Source: an uncultured Pseudomonadales bacterium (GTDB taxonomy: Bacteria > Pseudomonadota > Gammaproteobacteria > Pseudomonadales > Azotimanducaceae). From it: DNA of 64,000 nt. This document shows, piece by piece, positions 6,809 through 21,639 of the stretch (within the stretch, counting starts at the first letter, position 1; each line of letters starts with the position of its first letter). The notes beneath the pieces are model-generated. The model was not told the origin of the DNA. It saw nothing but the letters and a program-made list of their open reading frames with translations, and did no database searches. The stretch lies in NCBI GenBank assembly GCA_958296195.1, contig OY282455.1, positions 2,914,001 through 2,978,000 of the forward strand, given 5' to 3'. Made by a program: the position numbers and the translations under genes.

Positions 6809-7783
6809 CTAAAAGGTGGGGACAGTATATCCAAAGTGATCCCAAAATCTGGAACGGCTATGGCGGAGAGTATTGGCATCGCCAACGCCCTTGGACGGCG
6901 CAAAGTTCATCCACAGCGACTCCTGTCTTTTGCCCTTTGAGGAGTTGCACAGTTTTTCGTCGGCGTCAACGCGGTGCCAATCGGCGAACAGGTGATCGTA
7001 CAGGGGTGAGCGATAACCGGAAAGCACGGCGCGCCCTTGGATGCCGTGCAGCAGCGAGGCCAGTTCGCAGTGATCCTTGTCCGTCATTTCATGCCCGTAG
7101 GCGGCAGCGTCCCCTCGGCTGCTATGGACGTAGGGAGGGTCGAGATAGAACAGGGTTTGGGCCTTGTCGTAACGCTTGATGACCTCCAGCGCCGGCGCAT
7201 TCTCAATCTGCACGCGCTGCAGGCGTTGTGCGATTTCAGGCAGCCCTTCGACAGCGCCCAGCCAGCGGGACACGGCACCAGCCATGCCCGCCCGGGATGT
7301 CAGGACGCAGTGCGCCCAGCGTCCTTCGCTGCTGCTTTGCGCCAACCCCGTACGAGTCTGGCGAGCGCGAATATAGAACCTTCTTGCTCGTTCCAAGGGC
7401 GACAGATCGGGTTCTGGTTGGCAAGCATGAACCAGTTCCTCCCGCGAAAACGGCGTTAGCCCAATCTGGCGGACGAGATCGTCTTGTTGGCTGCGCAGCA
7501 CCGAAAAGAAGTTGACCAACTCGGAATCCAGATCGTTGTAGGTCTCCACTTTTGCTGGCGGGCGGTTGATGAGAACCGCCGCGGAGCCGCCATAGACATC
7601 GCAGAAGTGTTCAGCGTCGTTGGGCAGGTGGGGCAAGATGAAGCCTAAGTGGATGTATTTGCCGCCGTACCACCCGAAGGCAATCATCTTGCGGCGACGG
7701 CGGCTGGCGTTCCCAACCAAGCGGCGGACTCCACTGGTCTTGGCCTCTTCCCTTGGAATTGGCGCCAAAAGGCTGTCGGACAT
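6809..7783 (-). CDS. D12-class N6-adenine DNA methyltransferase
   Basis: This is a 324-aa Dam-like (D12 class, alpha arrangement) methyltransferase. Seen in order: FGWYGGKY (residues 36-43, SAM-binding motif X), DVYGGSAAVL (62-71, motif I), YNDLD (82-86), and the catalytic DPPY (215-218, motif IV). It should transfer a methyl group from SAM to adenine N6. The ATG is supported by GGAGG seven bases upstream. A good promoter (TTGATA, 17 bp, TATTTT) lies further up. There is no adjacent restriction endonuclease, so it is an orphan, or part of a mobile or defence locus, paired only with the DUF433 gene downstream. The C-terminal 28 residues after SLWMNF are unusual. Confidence 0.9.
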   Translation of the reverse strand: MSDSLLAPIPREEAKTSGVRRLVGNASRRRRKMIAFGWYGGKYIHLGFILPHLPNDAEHFCDVYGGSAAVLINRPPAKVETYNDLDSELVNFFSVLRSQQDDLVRQIGLTPFSREELVHACQPEPDLSPLERARRFYIRARQTRTGLAQSSSEGRWAHCVLTSRAGMAGAVSRWLGAVEGLPEIAQRLQRVQIENAPALEVIKRYDKAQTLFYLDPPYVHSSRGDAAAYGHEMTDKDHCELASLLHGIQGRAVLSGYRSPLYDHLFADWHRVDADEKLCNSSKGKRQESLWMNFAPSKGVGDANTLRHSRSRFWDHFGYTVPTF

Positions 7784-10316: not shown

Positions 10317-13300
10317 TCACGGGAGTCCGAGTCGGCGGATGACGTTGCCTGTCGCGGCCGGCAGATTGGCGCGAACGATCAGTTCGTTCTCCACGATTAC
10401 GGGGATTGCTCCGTTGGCGAGAGCCTCGGCAACCGATGGGTCGGCGGGACGCCCTGGGGTCAAGGGGGCCGAAAGAGCAATGACGAACTGATCGCCACCA
10501 GTGCCTTCGGCGAGTATTGGCGCAGTCAATGTAGTCCCACTGACGGACACCGGAGCGTCCATGGAGAACTGTGCACCTGATGTAGCTTGGCGGCGGAGAT
10601 CGTTGCAAAGGAGGGCGGTCGAGGATTGCAGGCGGTCCCTACTGAATTCGGTCAATTCGCCGGCGATCAGGTACTCCAATAGCTGCGCCCCGATATGTCG
10701 GTCCAGAAGGCTGTGTTCGATCTTGTTCTTGAAGCTGCGCAGACAGCGGTAGCAGGACGAATCACAGTTCTCAGGGCAATCCCTCAGGAGGGAGAGTGCT
10801 GCTTCGAACAAATCGACGCCAGAGTCGGCGAGTTCGGCGGAAAATCCAGCACCGCCCGGCAACGTGTCGTAGAGGAAAATCTCGGCTTCAAGCCCGATCT
10901 TTCCCTCAGGGGTAAGGGCAGGGCGATACTCCGCCATCAGTTCGCCGGGCTCAAGTTCTAGCAACTGGCAGGCAGCTTTCGCTAGGGCCTCACTCAAAGT
11001 CCTGAGAGCTACCGCTGTTGACGTGTGACCGGGCCTCAGACTGGTGGGCGGCGCCACGCGCATTGAAAAGAGAGCGATGTCGGTGATGAAGTCTGTTCCT
11101 AGCACGATGTGGCGGGAGGGGTGCGTGCCGTCGCAATCGCGTCTGTCGTCGTCGTCGGGGTAGGGCTTCAGGTGCGAACCTGTGACCTTAGGGGATCTCT
11201 CTGTGTTCGCTTCAATGCGACCACATTTCGTGCAATAGGTGTACCCGCCCTTCCGCGGCCCGGTGTTGGACACGAGAAGATGTTGGCGGGACCGTAGGAC
11301 GCGGGCTCGGTCGTTGATCGCCAGCCATGCGGCCTCGTCGCCCGGCGTGTCCATAGTGAGTTTCGCACGGGTGGCGTAGCTTATCTCCGGCATGTCATCG
11401 GGAGAGATAAGTTCCTCCGCATCAACGGGATGAGCGAATCCAGGAGGGCGTAGCCAATAACGACCCGGACCGAAAGTCTGTTCTCCGCCGCATGCCTGGC
11501 AGTCCTGCGTCTCGTCTCTCGACGCTTGGTCGATGGAGTATGTGCTCGCAAAGCCGCATTCTCGGCACTCCATGTAGATGCGTTTGGACTCCCAAGAGGC
11601 GTACCGTTCGTTGGGATTAGCCGAATAGACGGCACCAGAGGTGTAGCACTTGCCGGAAATCCACACCTGCTTGCCCGGGGCGTACTGAGTAAGGGCGGTG
11701 GGAAGACCCTGTTGGGGGGCAAATCGCATTATTGGCCGAAACCGGGAAGACCGGTCCAAGTCGAACACGTGGAAGGTGGCGACATCGGTTGGGAAGGCAT
11801 AGCGGGGCAGCTTGCCGCAATAGAGAAGGCGGTCAAGGAGCCCCTCGGTGCCGGCGTGCTGCCGAGGACGTTCCTCGCCCTCTTCGGCGGATACTTCCGG
11901 TTGTGGGTTAACGTCGGCGTCACTGGACTTCTCTTGGCCTTCCGATCCACGTCCGATAGCGGCGTCAATGGCGCTGATGCAGTCATCCGCCAGTTCAGTC
12001 AATAGCACGCAACGGTCGTCACCACCGAGTTCCTCCGGAATCCACGAAGACACGAGGTCCCGGAGGCGTTCGCAATGCTCCATCAGCCAGGCCGCGAAGT
12101 CGTCCCGATTGAGTATGGACGCGCTGTCACGGAAGCTTGAAACGGTACCCAGCACCGAAAAGAGGTCATGCGGATGGCTGGGGTCAATCCTCGGTATTCT
12201 GTCCTGATGATAGCTCTGCAGAAGATATGCGCGGATGTGTCGGCGCACGATCTCGCGGTTGTCGAGCGTAAGTCTCGGATCAACCACATCACCTCGGATC
12301 ATTCCATCCGGTTTGGTGAAGTAATGCTCATCATGACTGTCGGCACTTCCGAAGGCAACGACTGTGGCGACAGCGTTGCCGCGGCGGCCGGCTCGACCGG
12401 ACCGCTGCTGGTAGTTCGCGCGACTGGGCGGCATGTTGCGTAGAGCGACCCCCGACAACGCACCAATATCGATGCCCACCTCCATAGTAGTGGTGCTGGA
12501 CAGAACATCGATGGCGGTGGGTCTTGAACTGAGGCGATCGAAGGCGATGTCTTGGAACAGGAGTTCGTTTTCTTCGGCTTTGGAGAAAACGTCTTCACTC
12601 TGCGGAGCGTTCAACTGCGCGGTATGTTCGGCAGCGACAAGCGCGATGGGCTGGCGGGGGGATACACCGAGGGCTGCGGTGACAGGGTTGCGATAGAAGC
12701 CTTTGCGGGCGAGGAAGATGGGATCGTGGTCCGGATCTAGCGGCCTTGTGGCGTCGCTGCCGCAATCGAGGCAATGACCGATGCCTGATACCGGTCTATG
12801 GACTGACTTGCAGCCGGTGCAGTGGATCCATCGTCCATCGAAGAGGAGCGTCAGTTCGTTGCCTCGCAGTCGCCTGAAGCCGTCGCCCATGTCCTCAGTG
12901 AACAGAGAGAGCAGCGTTGGGAGCCACTGCTCCCGAAAAGCCTTACGCACCGACCTTTCTAGAAGGACGGTGTCCATGGCCTGGAACCAACCCCTTTGGC
13001 CGCGGACGCTTCGCCTCCACCAGACAGGAGGCATCGAACTCAGCCAGAAACCCCTATTCTGCCAGCAGCGCAACCAAGCTCGCACGAGGTCGACTTTGGC
13101 GACGGGCGTTTCTGCGATGCCCGAAATGGGCGGTAGTTGTTGCAGGGTGATTGTGTGCCTGCCCCGTTCGGCGATGGAGGCAAGCGCCAATGCTTCGAGT
13201 CCGAGAAAACGATCCTGGACGGTGGTTACGATTTGGTCGAGAAGCGCTTCAGGGGGGCGCTCGCCTCGGATGTCCATGCAGAGGGCAAGTAGATCCGTGT

Positions 13301-15842
13301 CGTCCTCGGCGGCCCCCCTCGCAATGGCATCCAGAACGGTCTGCTCCGCTTCGAAAGTCTCGCCGGATTTGACTTCGGGACGCAGACGGACGTTGAGCTT
13401 CTTTGAGGCGAGTAGGACCGCCAGATAGAGGTCCTGAAGATTCAGGGGATCGTGAAGGACGGGTACGTCTTGGAGGCGTCGGTAGCCCCACGCGATAAGA
13501 GGTCGAAGTGAATCGCGTGTCGAGTACATTTGAAGATTCGGTGCAAGCCGTGCGGCAACTTGTCGCGAGTCGGAGAAGGTGAGCACCTTTCGGCCTTGAA
13601 GCGGGGCGAAGGGCGTCGCTTTGACAGCGGAGGGGGGCTGCACCTGCAATTGTCGGGCTACAAGGGCCTGGAATGGCTGATCGCCTTTCGTCTGGTGATC
13701 CTGGACATAGGAACGGCCAAAACGAGCCGTCTTGCCGCAAACGGCGCAGGGAGCGAACTGGCCGTGCGACTCGATCGCCGTAGGGGAGTCGTCGTCTTCG
13801 TCCGTTGGGTCGGACACCCGGTCGTTGCGAATGTGGACTCTGCGCATGCGCGGGCCCAACGACTCCGGGTTTAGACGCCCAGTTTCAAGGTCATAATCGG
13901 CAGGTTCGGCGAGATCATTAAACGCGGGGGTTCCAAGAAGGAGGTCGAGAGCGAGCAGTGGGCCGGTCTCGCCTTCCGCCATGCGCAGACTCTCCCCAGG
14001 CTCAGACCACAGAGCTTGGGGAACGTCGATGTCGTCGGTGTAGGCCCGTGCGTACGCGGTGCCGCAATTCCGGCAGGTGTAAAGTTCGAGAACGCGGGCC
14101 CCACACTCGCAGGAGTCGCGTGGCTGGCTGTACATCTTGCCACAGATTCCGTCCCTCTCCCCGTCCCCAAGCCTGATGCACTCGCCATCCATGCATACCC
14201 AAAGACCCGGCAGTCCCCGAAAGAAGCTGTGGATACGGCAGGGGAGCAAGCCCGGGGTCGATTGATCTTGTCGTGCGGCGCTCCCAAGGGCCATTAGCGT
14301 GTTGGCCGCAGTGTCGGCTTTGCTGCGGGGGGCAGTGGGGAAGAGCATGCGACTGAGATCTGCGACCGGGACTGCCTGTTTCATTGTTGCGTTGATCAGC
14401 CGGCCCATGGGTGGGAAATCGGCAAGGGCACGGTAGAGGGCCACTGCCGGCGAGTCATCGTCTTGCGCCTGTCGATGATTCAGTAGGGGTTTGACGACAG
14501 AGAGGCGCTCCTCGTCGGTCGCAGCCGCGTAGTATCGCGGCAAGTCGACGTCAGCTAGGACCTCGGCGTCTTGGTCGGACCCGGTAGCATCGTGCGGTCG
14601 CAACGCAAGATTTCCGGAGATGGGTAGGAAGCTCTCCGCCCGCAGGCCCGATAGTTGAGCACCGAAAAGCGGGGCGTACGCATGGTCGTTGAAGCTCGCT
14701 GTAGCGCAGATAACTTGGAGTCGCGATGGCGGAATTCCGAGGCGGTCGCGGAGGCGGCGCAGGAGAAGCCCCACCTCTGCTCCAGCGGCTCCCCGGTAGA
14801 GATGCGCTTCGTCAAGGACGACGAGAAAGGTCTCGTCGGGATTGGCTGCAAGGAATGCGCGGGTCATATCGAAGATGGACCGCTCGATCGGGCGCATCAT
14901 CATGTACTCAAGCATGGAGTAGTTAGTGACGAGGAGGTCGGGTGGTGCCGCCTGCACTTCGTGGCGGGTGATGAGTTCGGTGTCGTCCGGCAGTGTGACG
15001 GCTCTCACGAATTCCTTTGTCCTTGGGTTCTGCCACCTGCTTCCTTTCTGGCCTAGCCACGCAGTCAGATCCGGCTTCGCGGGCCACTTACCCCGCTCCT
15101 TGAGGGCCTGCAAGAGGCGTTGCGCTTCGGCTTGCTTCAATGGATCCGTTTCCCGAGCATCGCGCTCAATGTCGACGTAGAACTCATTGAACGACTTGAG
15201 CCTGGTGGAGTCCTTTTGGGCGGTTCGTACGCCCGCGTATGGCGTACGACTGGTATAGCGCGCAAAGCGGGGAGGCCGACCCGCCCACCCCTTGAAAAGC
15301 GAGACGAGACGAGGATCGCCGAAAAGAGTCCTCAAGCGCCCCAACTGGTCGTTAACCAAGGCGTTCATGGGATACAGGACAAGCGCCCGCATGGCAGACC
15401 GCTGGCCGAAGGTATCGGGGCTATTGCTTGCCTCGTGGGCCAGTTTTCCTAGGATCGGCAATAGGAACGACTCGGTCTTGCCCGACCCGGTGCCGGTCAT
15501 GATAATGAGATTACGACCTTCAATCAGGCTGCCACGAATGGCCTCCGACTGATGCCTGTAAGGTGGGTCGTAGATCAGCTTGGGAAGGTCTCCCTGCTGA
15601 CTTGAGACGGCGAGATAGGCCTGCAAGGCGGCTGGATTTAGTCCGACCATGTCCGAGAAGGGCTCGCCCGTTTCGTAGCGTGGCGTGGATTCGAGGTACG
15701 GAACTTGGTGGATCACGCCAGGGCGGTCCAAAAGGATCTTGCGTCGTGCGATCAGCGACTTGGCGCTAATGTGATACGTCGCCTCGATGTAGTCGCGCAG
15801 TGCGCCGTGAAGTTGCTCTATTGATTGCTGGATCGTTGACAT
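10317..15842 (-). CDS. druE: Druantia-like DruE: large DEAH helicase with DUF1998 C-terminal domain
   Basis: This 1841-aa helicase is the hallmark subunit of Druantia anti-phage systems. The Q-motif-like region YRHQSEAIRG (95-104) precedes Walker A TGTGSGKT (116-123) and the DEAH box (344-347). Helicase motif VI, SGRAGRRGN, lies near residue 1170. Many CxxC pairs suggest several zinc ribbons (for example CECGARVLELYTCRNCG near 610 and YCTKCGRIEAN near 1540). The C-terminus has the DUF1998 signature, TLPGGAGFSAEL then DCPENCDSSCYRCL near 1685 and EHSLLDRH. It is the last gene of a four-gene minus-strand operon, starting 11 bases after the preceding stop. DISARM DrmB and other DUF1998 helicases are relatives, but the DruA gene in the same operon argues for Druantia. 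Confidence 0.85.
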   Translation of the reverse strand: MSTIQQSIEQLHGALRDYIEATYHISAKSLIARRKILLDRPGVIHQVPYLESTPRYETGEPFSDMVGLNPAALQAYLAVSSQQGDLPKLIYDPPYRHQSEAIRGSLIEGRNLIIMTGTGSGKTESFLLPILGKLAHEASNSPDTFGQRSAMRALVLYPMNALVNDQLGRLRTLFGDPRLVSLFKGWAGRPPRFARYTSRTPYAGVRTAQKDSTRLKSFNEFYVDIERDARETDPLKQAEAQRLLQALKERGKWPAKPDLTAWLGQKGSRWQNPRTKEFVRAVTLPDDTELITRHEVQAAPPDLLVTNYSMLEYMMMRPIERSIFDMTRAFLAANPDETFLVVLDEAHLYRGAAGAEVGLLLRRLRDRLGIPPSRLQVICATASFNDHAYAPLFGAQLSGLRAESFLPISGNLALRPHDATGSDQDAEVLADVDLPRYYAAATDEERLSVVKPLLNHRQAQDDDSPAVALYRALADFPPMGRLINATMKQAVPVADLSRMLFPTAPRSKADTAANTLMALGSAARQDQSTPGLLPCRIHSFFRGLPGLWVCMDGECIRLGDGERDGICGKMYSQPRDSCECGARVLELYTCRNCGTAYARAYTDDIDVPQALWSEPGESLRMAEGETGPLLALDLLLGTPAFNDLAEPADYDLETGRLNPESLGPRMRRVHIRNDRVSDPTDEDDDSPTAIESHGQFAPCAVCGKTARFGRSYVQDHQTKGDQPFQALVARQLQVQPPSAVKATPFAPLQGRKVLTFSDSRQVAARLAPNLQMYSTRDSLRPLIAWGYRRLQDVPVLHDPLNLQDLYLAVLLASKKLNVRLRPEVKSGETFEAEQTVLDAIARGAAEDDTDLLALCMDIRGERPPEALLDQIVTTVQDRFLGLEALALASIAERGRHTITLQQLPPISGIAETPVAKVDLVRAWLRCWQNRGFWLSSMPPVWWRRSVRGQRGWFQAMDTVLLERSVRKAFREQWLPTLLSLFTEDMGDGFRRLRGNELTLLFDGRWIHCTGCKSVHRPVSGIGHCLDCGSDATRPLDPDHDPIFLARKGFYRNPVTAALGVSPRQPIALVAAEHTAQLNAPQSEDVFSKAEENELLFQDIAFDRLSSRPTAIDVLSSTTTMEVGIDIGALSGVALRNMPPSRANYQQRSGRAGRRGNAVATVVAFGSADSHDEHYFTKPDGMIRGDVVDPRLTLDNREIVRRHIRAYLLQSYHQDRIPRIDPSHPHDLFSVLGTVSSFRDSASILNRDDFAAWLMEHCERLRDLVSSWIPEELGGDDRCVLLTELADDCISAIDAAIGRGSEGQEKSSDADVNPQPEVSAEEGEERPRQHAGTEGLLDRLLYCGKLPRYAFPTDVATFHVFDLDRSSRFRPIMRFAPQQGLPTALTQYAPGKQVWISGKCYTSGAVYSANPNERYASWESKRIYMECRECGFASTYSIDQASRDETQDCQACGGEQTFGPGRYWLRPPGFAHPVDAEELISPDDMPEISYATRAKLTMDTPGDEAAWLAINDRARVLRSRQHLLVSNTGPRKGGYTYCTKCGRIEANTERSPKVTGSHLKPYPDDDDRRDCDGTHPSRHIVLGTDFITDIALFSMRVAPPTSLRPGHTSTAVALRTLSEALAKAACQLLELEPGELMAEYRPALTPEGKIGLEAEIFLYDTLPGGAGFSAELADSGVDLFEAALSLLRDCPENCDSSCYRCLRSFKNKIEHSLLDRHIGAQLLEYLIAGELTEFSRDRLQSSTALLCNDLRRQATSGAQFSMDAPVSVSGTTLTAPILAEGTGGDQFVIALSAPLTPGRPADPSVAEALANGAIPVIVENELIVRANLPAATGNVIRRLGLP

Positions 15843-15853
15843 GGGGTGTGTCC

Positions 15854-16936
15854 CTATTCTGAGTCCTTTGTGCGCGACAGCCAGAGTCTATCTTGGAGGA
15901 ACTCCTCCTCCGTTTCGGCTTGGGCGTTTGGTACGAGGTAGGAGAGAAGACTCTTTTCCGGTGGCATGGAGTTGCCGAAAACCATAAGACGGCGTTGCGA
16001 CCACTGTGGCAGCGGCGAAAAGAAGTCGAATCGGACACCGCGAGTCTCAGGGCGGCGACGATATTGCTGCGGGTTGTGGCGGCAATGGTCAATGGCCATT
16101 TGGAGGTGCCAAGCTGTGTCGCAGGCCCGCCACCGAGTTTTCTCGAACGGGAGGTCGAGAAGGCGTACCGCCACGCCGTCCTCCAGCCGGACCAAGCACC
16201 ACATCGGTGCGCCGAACTCCTGAGGCCGCCTCGCGACGAACCTACCTGTTTGGTTCGTGGGGGTGACCCAACGATCCGGGTAGTAGTTGATCGGGCGTAC
16301 GGAGTCGAGGATCTTGAAGTTTTCTATGTTGGTGATGGGGGATTGGTGCGCAAGACGTTGATCGACTCGCGTCAGCATGTCATCCGGCGATTCGCCTTTC
16401 GGGCTCCTAAGCCAAACGCCTTCGGACAGCTGCTGTAGGCCCTGCTCCCGGAGTTCGTGCGCGAGATCTTCGCTTGGCTGCAATTCGATGGAACGCGTGA
16501 ATCCGTCGTGGTGGACACGGTTCCCGAGAAAAGCTGGCAGGAAGGTGTCCTGATCCGGAACTACGCCGAAAATGAACGCGGTGCCGTTAGGCCGGATGAC
16601 GAAGCCCGGAGGTGCAGCGAACACCCAAGTTTGGCGGACATCGGAGTCTTCGGTTACAACATCGTCTAGTTCGAGAAGGTCGCCGCGTACCGTGAGGGCC
16701 TCAATGGCCTCGTCGATGCGTTGTGAGCGACTGGCGTCATTGGTAGCCAAGCCTTGAGTGCATTCAAGCACCGAAGTGCGCAGCGTAGCCCGGGAACACG
16801 GGCAATGTATGCCTGCGCTACGTCTGAGGAGAGCAGCGAGCAGGGCGTCGTCGATCGACCCGTCGCCTTGATCTGGTAGGCCAAGGGTACGGCGGCAGCC
16901 GGCGAGTACTTCACTTGCCGTAACGCGTTCGATCAC
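15854..16936 (-). CDS. Unassigned Druantia-like cassette protein, 360 aa (possible DruC/DruD equivalent)
   Basis: This 360-aa protein, probably cytoplasmic, has no motif I can assign to a known enzyme. The N-terminal ERVTASEVLAGCRRTLGLP and following helical region, with a Cys-rich patch (HCPCSRATLRTSVLEC near residue 45), look like a winged-helix or helical adaptor. The middle (WVFAAPPGFVIRPNGTAFIFG, near 125) is a beta-rich segment, and the C-terminal half is rich in Trp and Arg. Its start codon overlaps the stop of the 960-aa gene (four bases) and its stop is 11 bases before druE, so it is translationally coupled within the cassette. By position it could correspond to DruD or DruC of canonical Druantia type I; that is inference only. 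Confidence 0.6.
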   Translation of the reverse strand: MIERVTASEVLAGCRRTLGLPDQGDGSIDDALLAALLRRSAGIHCPCSRATLRTSVLECTQGLATNDASRSQRIDEAIEALTVRGDLLELDDVVTEDSDVRQTWVFAAPPGFVIRPNGTAFIFGVVPDQDTFLPAFLGNRVHHDGFTRSIELQPSEDLAHELREQGLQQLSEGVWLRSPKGESPDDMLTRVDQRLAHQSPITNIENFKILDSVRPINYYPDRWVTPTNQTGRFVARRPQEFGAPMWCLVRLEDGVAVRLLDLPFEKTRWRACDTAWHLQMAIDHCRHNPQQYRRRPETRGVRFDFFSPLPQWSQRRLMVFGNSMPPEKSLLSYLVPNAQAETEEEFLQDRLWLSRTKDSE

Positions 16937-19815
16937 TTCGAGTACCTGCTGGGTGGAGTTGCATTCGCAGCGTCTCTAGACGGGGAGTTCCGTAGAAGTG
17001 TCAGCAGACGTGCAGCGCGAAGTATGGCTGGGTTATCGGTTAACTTCGCCAGCAGGCGCTCAAGGTTGGGATGGTCGGCAACTTCCGCAGCAGCTAGCGG
17101 TTCGTCGTTCGCTAGACGGAATGCGAATTCCGAGAGATCGCGGTCTTGGCAGACGTTGTGCCGCGCCGCCGCGTCCACGAACCAAGCGGCGGTCTCGCCC
17201 ACCGCCCCTTCTTCCACTAACCGGCTGCGCAGCACTCGTCCAAAGCCAGTGCCCGTGTCCACCGATGCAACCAGAGATTCGATCGAGGTGCGCAATCCCG
17301 GATGCTCCCTGAAGCGCGTCTCCGCTTTCGCCCAGTTTTCTCCGCATAGCGTTGCCCGAAGGGCGTCTACACCGCTGCCCAACACCTTGCGATGGCGCAG
17401 GGGAGCGAGAAAACCGGTCAATCGGGCGGCGCGCCAGAACGCAAGGTGGCGGAAGTAGGTGCAGAGTATGTGCGCACTCCTTTGTAGTGCGGGGAAGCTG
17501 GACTCCACCCCAAGTCCCTGTAAGCCCTGTTGCGCCGGTCCCGCGCTGACCAAAACAATGTCGCGATGCCGGCCATGGGTTACCACGAACAGTCCGCCTG
17601 GCGGTTCAACGACGTAGCCTGACCGGGCGGTATCAAGGCTAGGCGGCGCGGACTCGAAGGGGCTCTCCATGCGGAATAAGCTGATCTTTGGATCGGTTTC
17701 GTCTTGGCCACTATCGTCGACAAGTATGATGACAACTTCGCCGTGGCGGGAGCGTGTGATCCACCTTACTGGTACGGGCTCGTGTTCGAACCGGAGCGAG
17801 CAGGTACCCAAAGTATCTGCGCGGATCGCAAGCGTGCATATTGCCGCTTCCAGGTATCGCGAAGCGCGAGTTTCATTGTGCAGAAAACGGTCGAATCTGT
17901 CGCGCCACGCTTGCGGCGCTATTGGAATGTCCATAGGTGCGCCGACCTGCTCTGACAAGATTTTCTCGCCGGCTGCGGATTGCAAGGTTGCGTGGAATGT
18001 AGCGGCAAAGCCTTCGGGTCCATTGACAGATAGGCTGACGCTATTTCTCCAGAACATGTCGAGGTCGGCGTTATCAGGGTCGACTTGGACGATCATGCCT
18101 GAATGCGATGTGATGCCCGGCATCCACGGCTGAGGATCGCGCACTGCGAGCCGCGCAAATCCCTCAGCAGCGGGGGTGGGCGCGACGCTCTCAAGTTCCG
18201 GGCTTCGCTTGGCCGTAACTGTCATCTTGTGTGTGCCAGCCAACAAAGGCGGCAGACGTACGAACAGGGGATGTTCCGTGCCGTCCGCACGGATGAGCGT
18301 TTCAGGTTCGTCATTGAGACGGAACGACAGAGACTCGATCGGATGGTCGTGGTCGATGCCGAAGCAGGGCGACTCCGTGGTAAGCCACTCGCTGCTCCCT
18401 TCGCCGTCCCAGCCGCGGCCCGGTAGGCCAGCGGGCCAAACGCGGATGGTCCGTGTGACGTGCAGTCCCATCTCCTTCAATCGAGCTGTCATCTCTGCCG
18501 AGACAGAAGACGGCATCGAAAGTCGATAGCCGCTGACATTCTTGCAGGCGAGATTGCATGGCGTGACCCCTTCAAGGGTGTCTGGTGGTAGCGCCGTAGT
18601 AACGACGATATAGTCGAGGCTTGGCCGCACGATGCGCGATGCAATGTGGCGTGCGATGCCATCTGGACCTATTCGGAACAGCCAGAGCGGACCGGAATCG
18701 AGGCGACACTCCGACTCGAGAAGATGGTTTATCGTCGGATTGGGCTGCTGCTCGAAGTGGATGAGTGGTGAACCGGGACTAGGCCAAGATCGCAAGGCAC
18801 CCTTCCGGTCGCCGGACAGGAGCCATCCGGTGGGCTTGAAGTCGTGAGCGCCGTTGAGGCGGCATCGCGTTTGGTCCAAGAAGGATCGAATCTCGGCGCT
18901 CAGGGCAGCTACCGGGCGGAAGGACTTGACCTCCAGGAAGACCGACCATGTGCCCGCACCGGCATGCCGCAGCGAAAGGCTCGGTCGGATGGCCAAGTGC
19001 GAAGTGTCGGGGCGAGGGGGAACATTTGGGCCGGCAGGAGGACGGGATAAAGGCGGACCGGTTCCTCGTCCGATCCCCTTGAAACGGTCGGAGACCGCCC
19101 GCCTTGTCTCCTTGAGCCACTCGCGGGCGGCGCGGACTTCTTCTAGGTCGGCGACGATACGCTCCAAGGTATGTGGGTGGATGAGCTTGCCCTCGACAGA
19201 CTCCCCGCCAAGCAGTGCGGCGACGATCTGTCCAGTCAACTCTTCCTGCTCAAGAAACGCCTTGAAGCGCTTACGGGCATGATACGCGTGGAAAGCGAGT
19301 AGCCGACCGACTGTGCGCACATCAAGCGTTCTAGACGCGAGTAGAAAGCGAAGGTCGTAGAGGAGTTCGGCGAACTGGCGCTGGAGGTAGCGCGGAAGGA
19401 TCGCGTGGGTGATCGGCCAAGCGATGATGCTGAAGTGCTCTGCCCATGTGCCGGATGGAGTCACACCATCAAAGGCTCTTTGGAACTGGCGAAACCAAGA
19501 CTTCATCCGGTCACGGTGGTGATACTCCCATCCTGGCGTTTGGTCTTCAAAGGAGTTCCAGTACTCGTCCCCTTCGTAGCGGTAGCCCAGTTCGGTTGCG
19601 TAGATTACCCAAAGCAGCCAGTACCGCGATGACAGTGAGCCTTCACTCAACGCACGGCGAAGCATCGATTGCAACTGCTGCAGCTCCGTCTCGTTCAGGT
19701 CGTGCTCAAAGGCGAAGATGGGGAAGGTCGAAGTATCCCGCGTTCTCTTCAACGCTTCGAAGTGTTCTTTCACACGTTGTTGCAACTGTACAAGCGGTAG
19801 GTCCACCGTGCTCAC
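16933..19815 (-). CDS. Unassigned Druantia-like cassette protein, 960 aa (possible DruB/DruC equivalent)
   Basis: This 960-aa protein has no recognisable catalytic motif. The N-terminal 250 residues are helical with a Trp/Tyr-rich stretch (SSRYWLLWVIYATELGYRYE, near residue 62), followed by a basic helix, a Pro-rich linker (near 255) and a long beta-rich region (about 290-700) with several segments resembling immunoglobulin-like or lectin-like strands (RLNDEPETLIRADGTEHPLF; GTHKMTVTAK). The C-terminus is helical again. It overlaps druA upstream and the 360-aa gene downstream by four bases each, so all are made from one mRNA. Canonical Druantia type I has three uncharacterised proteins between DruA and DruE. 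Here there are only two, and this long one may be a fusion or a distinct solution. Confidence 0.6.
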   Translation of the reverse strand: MSTVDLPLVQLQQRVKEHFEALKRTRDTSTFPIFAFEHDLNETELQQLQSMLRRALSEGSLSSRYWLLWVIYATELGYRYEGDEYWNSFEDQTPGWEYHHRDRMKSWFRQFQRAFDGVTPSGTWAEHFSIIAWPITHAILPRYLQRQFAELLYDLRFLLASRTLDVRTVGRLLAFHAYHARKRFKAFLEQEELTGQIVAALLGGESVEGKLIHPHTLERIVADLEEVRAAREWLKETRRAVSDRFKGIGRGTGPPLSRPPAGPNVPPRPDTSHLAIRPSLSLRHAGAGTWSVFLEVKSFRPVAALSAEIRSFLDQTRCRLNGAHDFKPTGWLLSGDRKGALRSWPSPGSPLIHFEQQPNPTINHLLESECRLDSGPLWLFRIGPDGIARHIASRIVRPSLDYIVVTTALPPDTLEGVTPCNLACKNVSGYRLSMPSSVSAEMTARLKEMGLHVTRTIRVWPAGLPGRGWDGEGSSEWLTTESPCFGIDHDHPIESLSFRLNDEPETLIRADGTEHPLFVRLPPLLAGTHKMTVTAKRSPELESVAPTPAAEGFARLAVRDPQPWMPGITSHSGMIVQVDPDNADLDMFWRNSVSLSVNGPEGFAATFHATLQSAAGEKILSEQVGAPMDIPIAPQAWRDRFDRFLHNETRASRYLEAAICTLAIRADTLGTCSLRFEHEPVPVRWITRSRHGEVVIILVDDSGQDETDPKISLFRMESPFESAPPSLDTARSGYVVEPPGGLFVVTHGRHRDIVLVSAGPAQQGLQGLGVESSFPALQRSAHILCTYFRHLAFWRAARLTGFLAPLRHRKVLGSGVDALRATLCGENWAKAETRFREHPGLRTSIESLVASVDTGTGFGRVLRSRLVEEGAVGETAAWFVDAAARHNVCQDRDLSEFAFRLANDEPLAAAEVADHPNLERLLAKLTDNPAILRAARLLTLLRNSPSRDAANATPPSRYSK

Positions 19816-21071
19816 CTCGACAGGTGGACTACTGTTGGGTCAAGACTGTGCGGGTTGCGGAGAACTTGGCTGGTTGTCCCGCGGCCAGTGAGCAGCGGCT
19901 GCAAGTCGTCGCTCGTCCAGGCTCGAAACTCGGGTCGTCGCCGCGACCGCGGCACTATCCAACGCTCCATGGCCAGTTCAGCAACTTTCCGGGCGCTCAG
20001 TAGCGATGAGAGGTCGGGCCTGCCCTTCCCGGTCTGCAGCAGACTCGTCGCGTTGTTGGCAAGACTGCAGAAGAAGACCTCTCTTTGAATGCCATGGCGA
20101 AGCAGATCGTTCCTGAAGCCTAGTGCTGTGAGGGCCGCTCGGGTGGTGCGCAGCCGCCAGTTCGGGCCTTGTCCGAACTGGTGCTGATCGGCATAGGGAT
20201 GGTCGATAGTGCGGAGGTACTCGCGCAATTCGAGGAAAAGCGAGTCGGGGATGTGGAAATGCCCCCAGCCACGGGTATATCCGATGGACTCGAAATAGGG
20301 ACGGCCGTCCAGTTTCAGGCGGTTGTAGACGGAGGATCGACCCATTGAGGAAGAGGTCGTGACGGCAAGCAGGTGCGCCTTCTTCTTCTTACCCGAAATG
20401 ATCCCCGTCGTACCGCCGTAGGATTCGGCGAAGGCGTCATAGAACTCGCGGCTTCGGACTAGGCACGCCACCATCTTTCCACCCAAGAGCGCGTTGTACG
20501 GGGGTAGAGCACCAAGGACATAGGCGTCCATTATGTTGACCAAGCGGGCTGCACGATCGTGAACATCCCAACCGACGAGTTTGTCCCGGACAGCGAGATT
20601 GAACACCGGGTCGCCGATTGCAATCAGGCCGATGAGCTTGTCGTTGTGGGCATCCCATACGAGATACCGGAGCCTGCGGCCAAATCCGTTGGATACCGGT
20701 ATGGACCAAGTGAGCGACGCGAGCCTGAATAACTCCGCCTCCCAAGTGCCCGCGGTGACCCGCTCCAACACGGGTTCAATTGACTCGGGGTCGACTTCGC
20801 GCCCGGAAGCAAAGTACTTGAGCAGTGTCGGTGTCGTCCGCGAAAGAAATTTCGCGCTAGCTAATAGTCGATCTTGTCTCTGCGAGCCATGCATGGCGCG
20901 AATCAGGTCTTTGTCGCTGCCCGCGATTTCGAGGGTACCTTGGCCAGACTTGCGGAAGCCAAGGGTGCGTAGATGGCGTCTGATCTTCCGTTTCAGGGAC
21001 GCCTCCCGTGCAGGCACCCGAATAACTGTATGCTGCCTAATTTTCACGTTATGCACTTCTGCAGGATCCAT
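19812..21071 (-). CDS. druA: Druantia-like DruA (DUF4338 protein)
   Basis: This 419-aa protein matches the DUF4338/DruA family. It has an N-terminal basic helix (LKRKIRRHLRTLGF, near residue 26), a central RYLVWDAHNDKLIGLIAIGD with VRDKLVGWD (about 145-175), NIMDAYVLGALPPYNALLGGK (near 185), and TTSSSMGRSSVYNRLKLDG (about 245-265), which are the conserved blocks of this family. The catalytic activity of DruA is not something I can state from sequence. It is the first gene of the four-gene defence cassette. The ATG has only a weak Shine-Dalgarno. It begins 36 bases after the yafQ stop on the same strand, so it may be read from the toxin-antitoxin promoter. Confidence 0.82.
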   Translation of the reverse strand: MDPAEVHNVKIRQHTVIRVPAREASLKRKIRRHLRTLGFRKSGQGTLEIAGSDKDLIRAMHGSQRQDRLLASAKFLSRTTPTLLKYFASGREVDPESIEPVLERVTAGTWEAELFRLASLTWSIPVSNGFGRRLRYLVWDAHNDKLIGLIAIGDPVFNLAVRDKLVGWDVHDRAARLVNIMDAYVLGALPPYNALLGGKMVACLVRSREFYDAFAESYGGTTGIISGKKKKAHLLAVTTSSSMGRSSVYNRLKLDGRPYFESIGYTRGWGHFHIPDSLFLELREYLRTIDHPYADQHQFGQGPNWRLRTTRAALTALGFRNDLLRHGIQREVFFCSLANNATSLLQTGKGRPDLSSLLSARKVAELAMERWIVPRSRRRPEFRAWTSDDLQPLLTGRGTTSQVLRNPHSLDPTVVHLSR

Positions 21072-21107: not shown

Positions 21108-21389
21108 TCAGAGTCCCAGTTCAGTGTGCGACCCGATGCGGACGAGCCGGAGTGTGCGGGCATCCGGCTTCTGGTAGATAAGCACCAGATCCGGTCTGAC
21201 GTGGCAGTCACGGAAGTCTGTCCACGGGCCGCTGAGCGCATGGTCATGGTGGAGAGGCTCCAGCGGGATATCGGTGGCAAGGGCGTGTACGATCGTCGCC
21301 AGACGTTTATCGAGGTCGGCTCGGTGACGGCCGCGGGATTCACGTCTATAATCGCGCTTGAACCGATGTGTCCGCTCAATCGTCCGCAT
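21108..21389 (-). CDS. yafQ: YafQ-family mRNA interferase toxin
   Basis: This 93-aa RelE-superfamily toxin is of the YafQ type. The N-terminal basic helix RFKRDYRRE is followed by LEPLHHDHALSGPWTDFRDC and the strand HVRPDLVLIYQ, the usual YafQ/RelE core with catalytic His and Asp candidates. It would cleave mRNA on the ribosome when free of antitoxin. The start lies inside the end of the dinJ-like gene (14-base overlap), typical antitoxin-first order. Downstream, druA starts after only 36 bases. Confidence 0.88.
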   Translation of the reverse strand: MRTIERTHRFKRDYRRESRGRHRADLDKRLATIVHALATDIPLEPLHHDHALSGPWTDFRDCHVRPDLVLIYQKPDARTLRLVRIGSHTELGL

Positions 21390-21639
21390 GCAGGTCGTCG
21401 AACAAGCCTTGGACGTCCTCGAACTGCGGGAGACTGCCGGTTCGTGCCTCCTTCATGGCCGCGATGGTGGCGGCGTTGGGAACGAGCGGAGCGAACGGTA
21501 GCGCCTTTTCATGCGCAACCCGAGTGAGCAGGAGGCGAACCGCGTCGGAGACTGTCAGGCCCATTGCGGCCAAGACCACTGCGGCCTCCTCCTTGACCTC
21601 CCTGTTGACGCGCGCTTGGACGAGCTGGCTGTGCGGCAT
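21376..21639 (-). CDS. dinJ: DinJ/RelB-family antitoxin
   Basis: The protein is 87 aa from the ATG at 21639, which has an AGGGG Shine-Dalgarno seven bases upstream. The N-terminal ribbon-helix-helix segment (QLVQARVNREVKEEAAVVLA, then MGLTVSDAVRLLLTRVAHE) is typical of DinJ, followed by an unstructured tail that would wrap the toxin. It is expected to neutralise YafQ and to autorepress the operon. The frame stays open upstream to 21702, but that extension is not family-like. The SDR gene starts divergently at 21777, leaving about 137 bases for both promoters. Confidence 0.87.
   Translation of the reverse strand: MPHSQLVQARVNREVKEEAAVVLAAMGLTVSDAVRLLLTRVAHEKALPFAPLVPNAATIAAMKEARTGSLPQFEDVQGLFDDLHADD

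What the first reader, a model, noticed from the sequence alone, without database searches (positions are those of the whole stretch)
10317..21071. Druantia-like defence cassette with a non-standard four-gene composition
Seen: four same-strand genes with 4-base overlaps or an 11-base gap, encoding a DUF4338/DruA protein, a 960-aa protein, a 360-aa protein and an 1841-aa DEAH-DUF1998 helicase. Known: Druantia systems are defined by DruE, and type I begins with DruA and has three uncharacterised proteins in between. Inferred: here two proteins take that place, one much longer and with a beta-rich, Ig-like central region. This may be a distinct Druantia subtype or a fusion of DruB and DruC.
Basis: partly seen in the sequence, partly recalled or inferred. 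Interest (0 to 1): 0.82.

Follow-up and report, generated by a model that had tools for sequence, protein, structure and literature searches.

The report
Druantia variant with Ig-like middle protein
This is a four-gene bacterial anti-virus cassette of the Druantia kind in which two of the standard proteins are missing and a different large protein, with antibody-like folds predicted in its middle, stands in their place; the same set recurs in other bacteria, so it looks like a genuine variant of a known system.

Summary
In detail: druA, a 960-aa gene, a 360-aa gene and druE lie on the minus strand at 10317-21071 with 4-base overlaps and an 11-base gap. DruA and DruE match PADLOC DruA1 and DruE1 strongly; the 360-aa protein matches two PADLOC DruD1 models over its whole length but E. 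coli DruD only weakly. The 960-aa protein matches no Pfam, NCBIfam or PHROGs family, no PADLOC DruB/DruC model and neither DruB nor DruC directly, so a DruB-DruC fusion is not supported. Of 25 genome-contig relatives, 15 carry the four-gene order, 7 keep 960-DruD-DruE without the adjacent DruA, and 0 show E. coli DruB or DruC. Its predicted layout is helical, Ig-like, helical. Distant relatives sit beside DISARM DrmAB, or with an SNF2 helicase beside DruE. Best reading: a recurrent Druantia variant closest to type I whose Ig-like protein probably senses infection and gates DruE, as proposed for DruH in type III. Sensing is inference; kinship with DruH was not established.

The parts
19812..21071 (-). 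DruA (DUF4338), 419 aa, first gene
   Evidence: PADLOC DruA1 682.5 bits; Pfam PF14236 DruA 275.5 bits; 68% identical to E. coli DruA over 375 residues
16933..19815 (-). 960-aa protein: N-helical about 1-245, beta-rich Ig-like 279-757, C-helical 781-943; in the position of DruB+DruC but without detectable similarity to them
   Evidence: no Pfam or NCBIfam family at E<=1, no PHROGs family at E<=0.01, only a weak local DpdF hit in PADLOC; model mean pLDDT 75.9, pTM 0.44; 23 Foldseek PDB hits at E<=1e-3; family alignment of 18 rows
15854..16936 (-). 360-aa DruD-position protein; helical N-terminal part, alpha/beta C-terminal part
   Evidence: PADLOC DruD1 PDLC00010 441.8 bits and PDLC00012 403 bits; weak colinear profile alignment with E. 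coli/P. putida DruD; model pLDDT 85.1, pTM 0.79; no PDB fold match at E<=1e-3
10317..15842 (-). DruE, YprA-family SF2 helicase with MrfA zinc-binding domain, 1841 aa
   Evidence: PADLOC DruE1 1998.4 bits; Pfam DEAD, Helicase_C, MZB; in 23 variant rows Walker A (TGTGSGKTES) and DEAH are invariant, one residue of motif VI varies, and the 8 CxxC pairs listed are invariant
21108..21389 (-). YafQ-type toxin gene just upstream of druA; probably not part of the system
   Evidence: Pfam YafQ_toxin 94.8 bits
21376..21639 (-). RelB-type antitoxin gene, presumed partner of the YafQ toxin
   Evidence: Pfam RelB 64.6 bits

Best explanation
It is a complete cassette of the Druantia kind, closest to type I, in which DruB and DruC are absent and a single ~950-aa helical / Ig-like / helical protein stands in their place (label used only in this report: Druantia I-variant). 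Most likely working: the Ig-like protein recognises a sign of infection (a phage protein, or phage DNA with a protein) and, with the DruD-like protein as adaptor, licenses DruE, an ATP-driven SF2 translocase, to load on phage replication DNA and block it; DruA is an accessory and exchangeable part. Shown here: gene set, conservation, purifying selection on the 960 gene, Ig-like fold prediction, absence of DruB/C, recurrence, absence of the short DruA in one branch. Inferred: phage defence itself, the sensing role (by analogy with DruH/DruE in Druantia III), the adaptor role, and the lack of an own nuclease.
For: Profile identities of DruA, the DruD-position protein and DruE. Same order in 15 of 25 scanned loci, in N. 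watsonii and in L067; no E. coli DruB, DruC or DruD tblastn hit at E<=1e-5 in any of the 25. 960 vs DruB/DruC unrelated by BLASTP and hhalign. Helix/Ig/helix model; the 23 Foldseek hits at E<=1e-3 are 10 chains of complement C3/C5, CD109 and alpha2-macroglobulin, 8 of a beta-glucuronidase, 3 Ig/FN3 receptors and 2 S-layer proteins. The 960 has the lowest identity to the window of {960, DruD, DruE} in 24 of 24 loci that have the three; DruH is likewise reported as more divergent than its DruE (PMC13192584, section 13 read). In 8 close pairs (not independent) dN/dS is 0.02-0.32 in all three regions, lowest in the N-helical part in 8 of 8. Helicase motifs conserved. Seven loci have 960-DruD-DruE without the short DruA. 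Horizontal gain is suggested: of 58 genomes (own plus 57 relatives) only the own has the 960 gene; the two genes that flank the cassette lie 1.4-1.9 kb apart in 3 of the 8 other genus genomes; cassette GC is 0.59-0.60 against 0.63 and 0.65 in the flanks.
Against: No experiment. The 960 is not demonstrably homologous to DruH: hmmsearch with the family's N-terminal profile did not report any of 4 DruH at E<=100, and hhalign gave one collinear N-terminal hit at P 0.018, a score reached by 1 of 200 column-shuffled controls. Ig-like folds have many roles, and the Foldseek TM-scores are low (0.09-0.14 over the query); the model is multi-domain and partly below pLDDT 50 (for example 120-142 and 226-272). 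No sign of positive selection; the most variable large region in the 18-row alignment is the C-helical part, not the Ig part (mean identity 0.31 vs 0.43, N-helical 0.55). No recognised nuclease domain was found in the four proteins.
Confidence: 0.6

Rival explanations
1. Fusion or strongly diverged form of DruB and DruC: the 960-aa protein is homologous to both but beyond sequence detection, and the system is ordinary type I.
For: Same operon position between DruA and DruD; DruB plus DruC in E. coli total 1175 aa (548 and 627) against 960; PADLOC DruE1 covers both groups. DruB/DruC profiles had only two rows each, so sensitivity was limited.
Against: BLASTP E 1.6 and 0.29, hhalign probability 0.2% and 0.1%, while the DruD-position pair in the same kind of test at least aligned colinearly over 212 columns. 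Sequence relatives of the 960 exist in DISARM and other loci, which a DruB-DruC fusion would not predict.
Confidence: 0.12
2. The 960-aa protein is a scaffold or DNA-loading factor for the helicase rather than a sensor of phage proteins: the conserved helical ends bind helicases and the Ig-like part is a spacer or oligomerisation surface.
For: Its distant relatives L005, L008 and L006 keep recognisable similarity in the N-helical module and a short C-terminal stretch (near 780-838) and almost none in the middle. They lie beside SNF2 helicases or DISARM DrmA/DrmB, which points to a helicase partner.
Against: A variable middle between conserved ends is also what a receptor would look like; nothing here separates the two.
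Confidence: 0.3
3. Not a working system: a decayed or fortuitous cluster carried along with a toxin-antitoxin pair.
For: The same-genus genome G001 lacks the segment, with a junction inside the neighbouring oxidoreductase gene and inside the toxin gene; decayed copies exist elsewhere (S. medicae with IS elements; L033).
Against: All four frames are intact in the window, gene order is kept in 15 of 25 loci, close pairs show purifying selection on the 960 gene and helicase motifs are conserved.
Confidence: 0.05

Closest known systems
Druantia type I (DruABCDE; E. coli locus L004, P. putida pKF715A locus L007)
   Same: DruA first (68% identical to E. coli), DruE last (38% and 31% in two segments; PADLOC DruE1), DruD-position protein before it (PADLOC DruD1 models); same orientation and tight spacing
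   Different: No DruB, no DruC; a 960-aa Ig-like protein instead; variant DruE rows form one group of 23 apart from the two canonical rows; DruD-position protein only weakly similar to E. coli DruD
Druantia type III (DruH-DruE)
   Same: A ~1000-aa partner beside DruE; DruH is described as N-helical, with three Ig-like domains and a C-helical part (PMC13192584, section 13 read)
   Different: No DruH match from the 960 (PADLOC; hmmsearch); weak collinear N-terminal hit only; type III has no DruA or DruD
DISARM loci (DrmA/DrmB) of Rhizobium L008 and Azospirillum L075
   Same: They carry distant relatives of the 960 of 988 and 1259 aa next to DrmA/DrmB, in L008 followed by an SNF2-type helicase scoring best to DpdE, BrxHI and DrmD models
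   Different: The window cassette has no DrmA, DrmB or SNF2 helicase; its helicase is DruE
Druantia-like loci of Leisingera L005 and Paracoccus L006
   Same: DruE-like helicase and a DUF4338 protein, plus a distant 960 relative nearby
   Different: Long DUF4338 protein, NERD gene, and the 960 relative is paired with an SNF2 helicase on the opposite strand

Membership tests
Druantia (any type) | DruE helicase, YprA-like SF2 with DUF1998/MZB | tested here: met
   PADLOC DruE1 1998.4 bits, Pfam DEAD/Helicase_C/MZB, conserved motifs
Druantia (any type) | Phage protection | not testable with these tools
   needs plaque assays
Druantia type I | DruA | tested here: met
   DruA1 682.5 bits, 68% to E. 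coli DruA
Druantia type I | DruB | tested here: not met
   no PADLOC DruB hit at E<=1, BLASTP E 1.6, hhalign 0.2%
Druantia type I | DruC | tested here: not met
   no PADLOC DruC hit at E<=1, BLASTP E 0.29, hhalign 0.1%
Druantia type I | DruD | tested here: inconclusive
   PADLOC DruD1 PDLC00010/12 over full length, but against E. coli DruD BLASTP E 0.022 and hhalign 1.4%; E. coli DruD hits PDLC00011 at 7.5e-5 and PDLC00010 at 1.4e-3
Druantia type I | DruE of the type I model | tested here: met
   DruE1 is the best model in the window and in the two canonical loci
Druantia type II / IV | DruF with DruM and DruG, or DruF with DruL | tested here: not met
   none among the PADLOC hits shown for the four proteins (for the DruE protein the best 25 of 42 families were shown); the definition of type IV is from PMC8565338, passages read
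Druantia type III | DruH next to DruE | tested here: not met
   no PADLOC DruH hit for the 960 or 360 protein; hmmsearch negative; marginal N-terminal profile hit leaves remote kinship open
DISARM | separate DrmA helicase and DrmB DUF1998 protein | tested here: not met
   single DruE with both parts; DrmA models score at most 45 bits, at the helicase core

The most novel reading that the evidence does not exclude
The 960-aa protein belongs to an undescribed family of swappable infection sensors for YprA-type helicase defences: conserved helical ends that dock on the helicase machinery and a fast-diverging Ig-like middle that reads the phage, used with DruE here, with DrmAB and/or SNF2 helicases in DISARM-like loci, and remotely related to DruH of Druantia III.
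Probability: 0.25. Interest if true: 0.75.

Novelty: new variant of a known kind. Interest (0 to 1): 0.5.

Why it matters
I found no published mechanism for type I Druantia: a whole-word search for papers with at least three of DruA, DruD, DruE and Druantia returned one paper, which lists the genes without a mechanism in the passages I read. A variant that keeps DruA, a DruD-like protein and DruE but has one unrelated Ig-like protein instead of DruB and DruC is a natural swap experiment: it says which parts are fixed and which are exchangeable, and it gives a target (Ig-like protein plus DruE) that can be compared with DruH-DruE. Relatives of the same protein in DISARM loci would link the two systems through a shared partner protein as well as through the helicase. 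Apart from a weak DpdF fragment no PADLOC model matched this protein at E<=1, so such loci are probably scored as incomplete type I (inference; the PADLOC rule files were not seen).

Tried and rejected
DruB-DruC fusion: rejected on sequence and profile comparison, with the caveat that only two rows of each were at hand. DruH homolog: tested by BLASTP against one DruH (best E 3.1), hhalign and hmmsearch; left inconclusive. DpdF relation: one PADLOC hit at E 4e-4 over 59 residues; the N. watsonii ortholog and two distant relatives gave no PADLOC hit, so I treat it as chance. Positive selection in the Ig-like part: none seen. A nuclease in the 360-aa protein: the sheet of the model looked suggestive by eye, but Foldseek gave no PDB match at E<=1e-3 and I saw no conserved nuclease motif, so not claimed. 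GNAT-like fold for DruA: a thought from the sequence by eye (recalled); the best PDB profile hit was E 0.079, to a vitamin D receptor, so not claimed. Viral contigs: the 960 gave no confirmed relative. The PADLOC DruC model over 369 class genomes matched 204, but the best score was 33.7 bits, to part of the model, and 9 of 14 control genomes rang too; I read this as coiled-coil cross-matching and did not use it. DruA exchange: canonical DruA rows fall among variant rows next to L002 (97/96), but 6 of 21 inner branches of that tree are open, so it is a suggestion only. Rows dropped: the DruE tree left out partial or split rows (L003, L010, L019), the DruA tree left out the long-type DUF4338 rows (L005, L006, L021-L024). 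The Foldseek viral library was not searched.
Full report
What is there. Four minus-strand genes at 10317-21071 with 4-base overlaps and an 11-base gap. DruA: PADLOC DruA1 682.5 bits, Pfam DruA 275.5 bits, 68% identical to E. coli DruA. DruE: PADLOC DruE1 1998.4 bits, with DEAD, Helicase_C and MZB domains. The 360-aa protein matches PADLOC DruD1 models PDLC00010 and PDLC00012 over its whole length (441.8 and 403 bits). The 960-aa protein has no family in Pfam or NCBIfam at E<=1 or in PHROGs at E<=0.01, and one weak local hit in PADLOC (DpdF, E 4e-4).

Against canonical type I. An E. coli druABCDE locus (L004) and a P. putida plasmid locus (L007) served as references. DruE is 38% and 31% identical to E. 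coli DruE in two segments. The 960 is not similar to DruB or DruC (profiles, two rows each). The 360-aa protein against E. coli DruD gives BLASTP E 0.022 and a colinear but weak profile alignment (probability 1.4%, P 0.038, 212 columns); E. coli DruD in turn hits PDLC00011 at 7.5e-5 and PDLC00010 at 1.4e-3. I therefore call it DruD-like, with membership inconclusive. PADLOC's DruE1 model covers the two canonical rows (2465 and 2332 bits) and the window (1998 bits).

Recurrence. N. watsonii plasmid pNWAT01 has the same four genes in order. Among 72,556 plasmid records 9 have a tblastn match to the 960 (5 over at least 80% of it) and 1 has one to E. coli DruB. A scan of genome contigs with a three-row alignment found 25 loci (311 stretches matched a pattern). 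By tblastn (recounted): 15 have all four genes with the short DruA directly upstream (in L019 DruE lies in two frames, in L010 it is cut by the contig end); 2 (L029, L031) end inside the 960 gene; 7 (L020-L025, L030) have 960-DruD-DruE without that DruA; 1 (L033) has only pieces of the 960. E. coli DruB, DruC and DruD had no tblastn hit at 1e-5 in any of the 25. By their titles 20 of the 25 are alphaproteobacterial and 2 gammaproteobacterial, and three metagenome-assembled genomes are labelled Sphingobacteriales, Terriglobia and Deltaproteobacteria (the first two with all four genes; binning errors cannot be excluded). In a search of 398 phylum genomes for DruA, 3 had a match at E<=1e-60: the own genome, one with the same four-gene set (L067) and one at 39% whose 11-kb contig showed no other gene of the set.

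The branch without short DruA. In four of the seven loci (L021-L024) a DUF4338 gene of the longer kind lies downstream of DruE on the other strand (PADLOC PDLC00001 695 bits for the L022 fragment, the only one tested). In L020, L025 and L030 none was seen within the 1.8-3.3 kb held after DruE. Next to DruE in L022 and L025 is a ~660-aa protein with AAA/helicase Pfam hits below the curated cut-offs for L022. This suggests that 960-DruD-DruE is the core and DruA is exchangeable. The DruE tree (quick method, 29 rows, long-branch warnings that include L004 and L026) puts the 23 variant rows on one branch with full support, apart from the two canonical rows. The DruA tree (24 rows) places the two canonical DruA rows with N. 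watsonii among variant rows (97/96), though its backbone is weak.

The 960-aa protein. The AlphaFold model from an 18-row alignment has mean pLDDT 75.9 and pTM 0.44, with helices to about residue 245, mainly strands at 279-757 and helices at 781-943. Foldseek against the PDB gives 23 matches at E<=1e-3: 10 chains of complement C3/C5, CD109 and alpha2-macroglobulin, 8 beta-glucuronidase chains, NCAM2 Ig1-3, an IL-23 receptor complex chain, IFNAR1 and 2 S-layer proteins; that these share Ig- or FN3-like domains is recalled. TM-scores over the query are 0.09-0.14. Mean pairwise identity is 0.55 in the N-helical part, 0.43 in the Ig part and 0.31 in the C-helical part; dN/dS in 8 close pairs is 0.02-0.32 everywhere and lowest in the N-helical part in 8 of 8 (the pairs are not independent). 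The 960 is the least conserved of {960, DruD, DruE} against the window in 24 of 24 loci. A profile search over open frames of the loci then held found distant relatives in L005, L008 and L006 (E 4e-33, 7e-32, 2e-16) that match at the N-terminal part (profile 4-254, 6-246 and 59-151) and a short C-terminal part near 780-838. With L075 these are similar to one another over most of their length, and L075 matches the N. watsonii ortholog at its N-terminal part (E 8e-16).

Where the relatives live. L008 and L075 contain DISARM DrmA (682 and 702 bits) and DrmB (282 and 291 bits). In L008 the 960 relative is followed by an SNF2-type helicase that scores best to DpdE, BrxHI and DrmD models. In L005 and L006 the relative plus an SNF2 helicase gene lies beside a DruE-like gene (1430 bits to DruE1 for L006), a NERD gene and a long DUF4338 gene.

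Comparison with DruH. DruH of Druantia III is described as N-helical, with three Ig-like domains and a C-helical part, and as a likely phage sensor (PMC13192584, a preprint; passages and section 13 read). A second paper reports activation of a type III system by a phage minor tail protein (PMC13316683, passages read). Four DruH genes, each next to a large helicase gene similar to DruE, were fetched (in L097 the helicase gene is cut by the contig end); PADLOC confirmed DruH for the two tested. BLASTP against one of them finds nothing significant. Profile comparison gives one collinear N-terminal hit, P 0.052 in the first test and 0.018 with more rows; 1 of 200 column-shuffled controls reached its score, and the reversed profile scored 16.3 against 24.9. 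hmmsearch with the family's N-terminal profile reported none of the four at E<=100. So the likeness is of layout; common descent is possible but not shown.

How it most likely works. Shown: gene set, order, conservation, fold prediction. From published work (PMC12458937, a preprint; abstract, sections 5, 7 and 26 and further passages read): DruE belongs to the YprA helicase family, and in types I and II its C-terminal nuclease is predicted inactive. Inferred: the Ig-like protein senses infection, the DruD-like protein couples it to DruE, DruE acts on phage DNA, DruA assists. I found no nuclease domain in the four proteins; cleavage, if any, may come from the host. The sensor step is the weakest link and the scaffold rival is close behind.

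Setting in the genome. Of 9 genus genomes 5 have the flanking oxidoreductase gene at E<=1e-100 and 9 have the flanking SDR gene. In 3 besides the own (G006, G007, G008) the two are divergent and 1.4-1.9 kb apart; in G002 they are on different contigs; in the window they are 11.7 kb apart with the cassette and a YafQ/RelB pair between. In G001, which lacks a full oxidoreductase gene, the two flanks meet inside the end of that gene and inside the toxin gene, which reads as a later deletion; what was deleted there is not known. Of 58 genomes (own plus 57 relatives) only the own has the 960 gene.

Literature. Searches for Druantia with DruB/DruC/DruD, subtype, type I structure, YjiT, new variants, Ig-like and DISARM terms (capped lists) showed, in titles, abstract starts and the passages I read, no description of this arrangement. 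PADLOC's Druantia type IV (PMC8565338, passages read) is a different set; PMC11090510 (passages read) and PMC7251935 (passages read) do not describe it in those passages. The original Druantia paper is not held and is recalled only, and supplements could not be opened, so earlier mention there cannot be excluded.

Noticed in passing
window 21108-21389 (-) and 21376-21639 (-): YafQ toxin and RelB antitoxin genes directly upstream of druA; N. watsonii also has an annotated RelE/ParE-family toxin gene upstream of its DruA, on the opposite strand.
   Followed up: partly
window 6809-7783 (-): D12-class adenine DNA methyltransferase (Pfam PF02086) two genes downstream of druE, beyond the oxidoreductase gene; whether it belongs to a defence island was not examined.
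   Followed up: no
L087 (same-genus genome G001) around 12257-12267: Junction joining the end of the oxidoreductase gene to the middle of the YafQ toxin gene, consistent with deletion of the segment that holds the cassette in the window.
   Followed up: yes
L005 1-17890 and L006 5257-21933: Composite loci: DruE-like helicase, NERD gene and long DUF4338 gene converging on an SNF2 helicase plus a distant 960 relative; they look like a further Druantia-like arrangement.
   Followed up: partly
L008 7501-20888 and L075 3127-15033: DISARM DrmA/DrmB with a UvrD-type helicase gene, divergent from a distant relative of the 960-aa protein.
   Followed up: partly
L104, L105, L106, L107: The N-terminal part of DruH also matches other open frames (306 to 1120 aa) in further genomes, so it may be a wider domain family; their neighbours were not examined.
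   Followed up: no
L003 (S. medicae pMl2): Copy of 960-DruD-DruE broken up by IS21 and IS3 elements.
   Followed up: no
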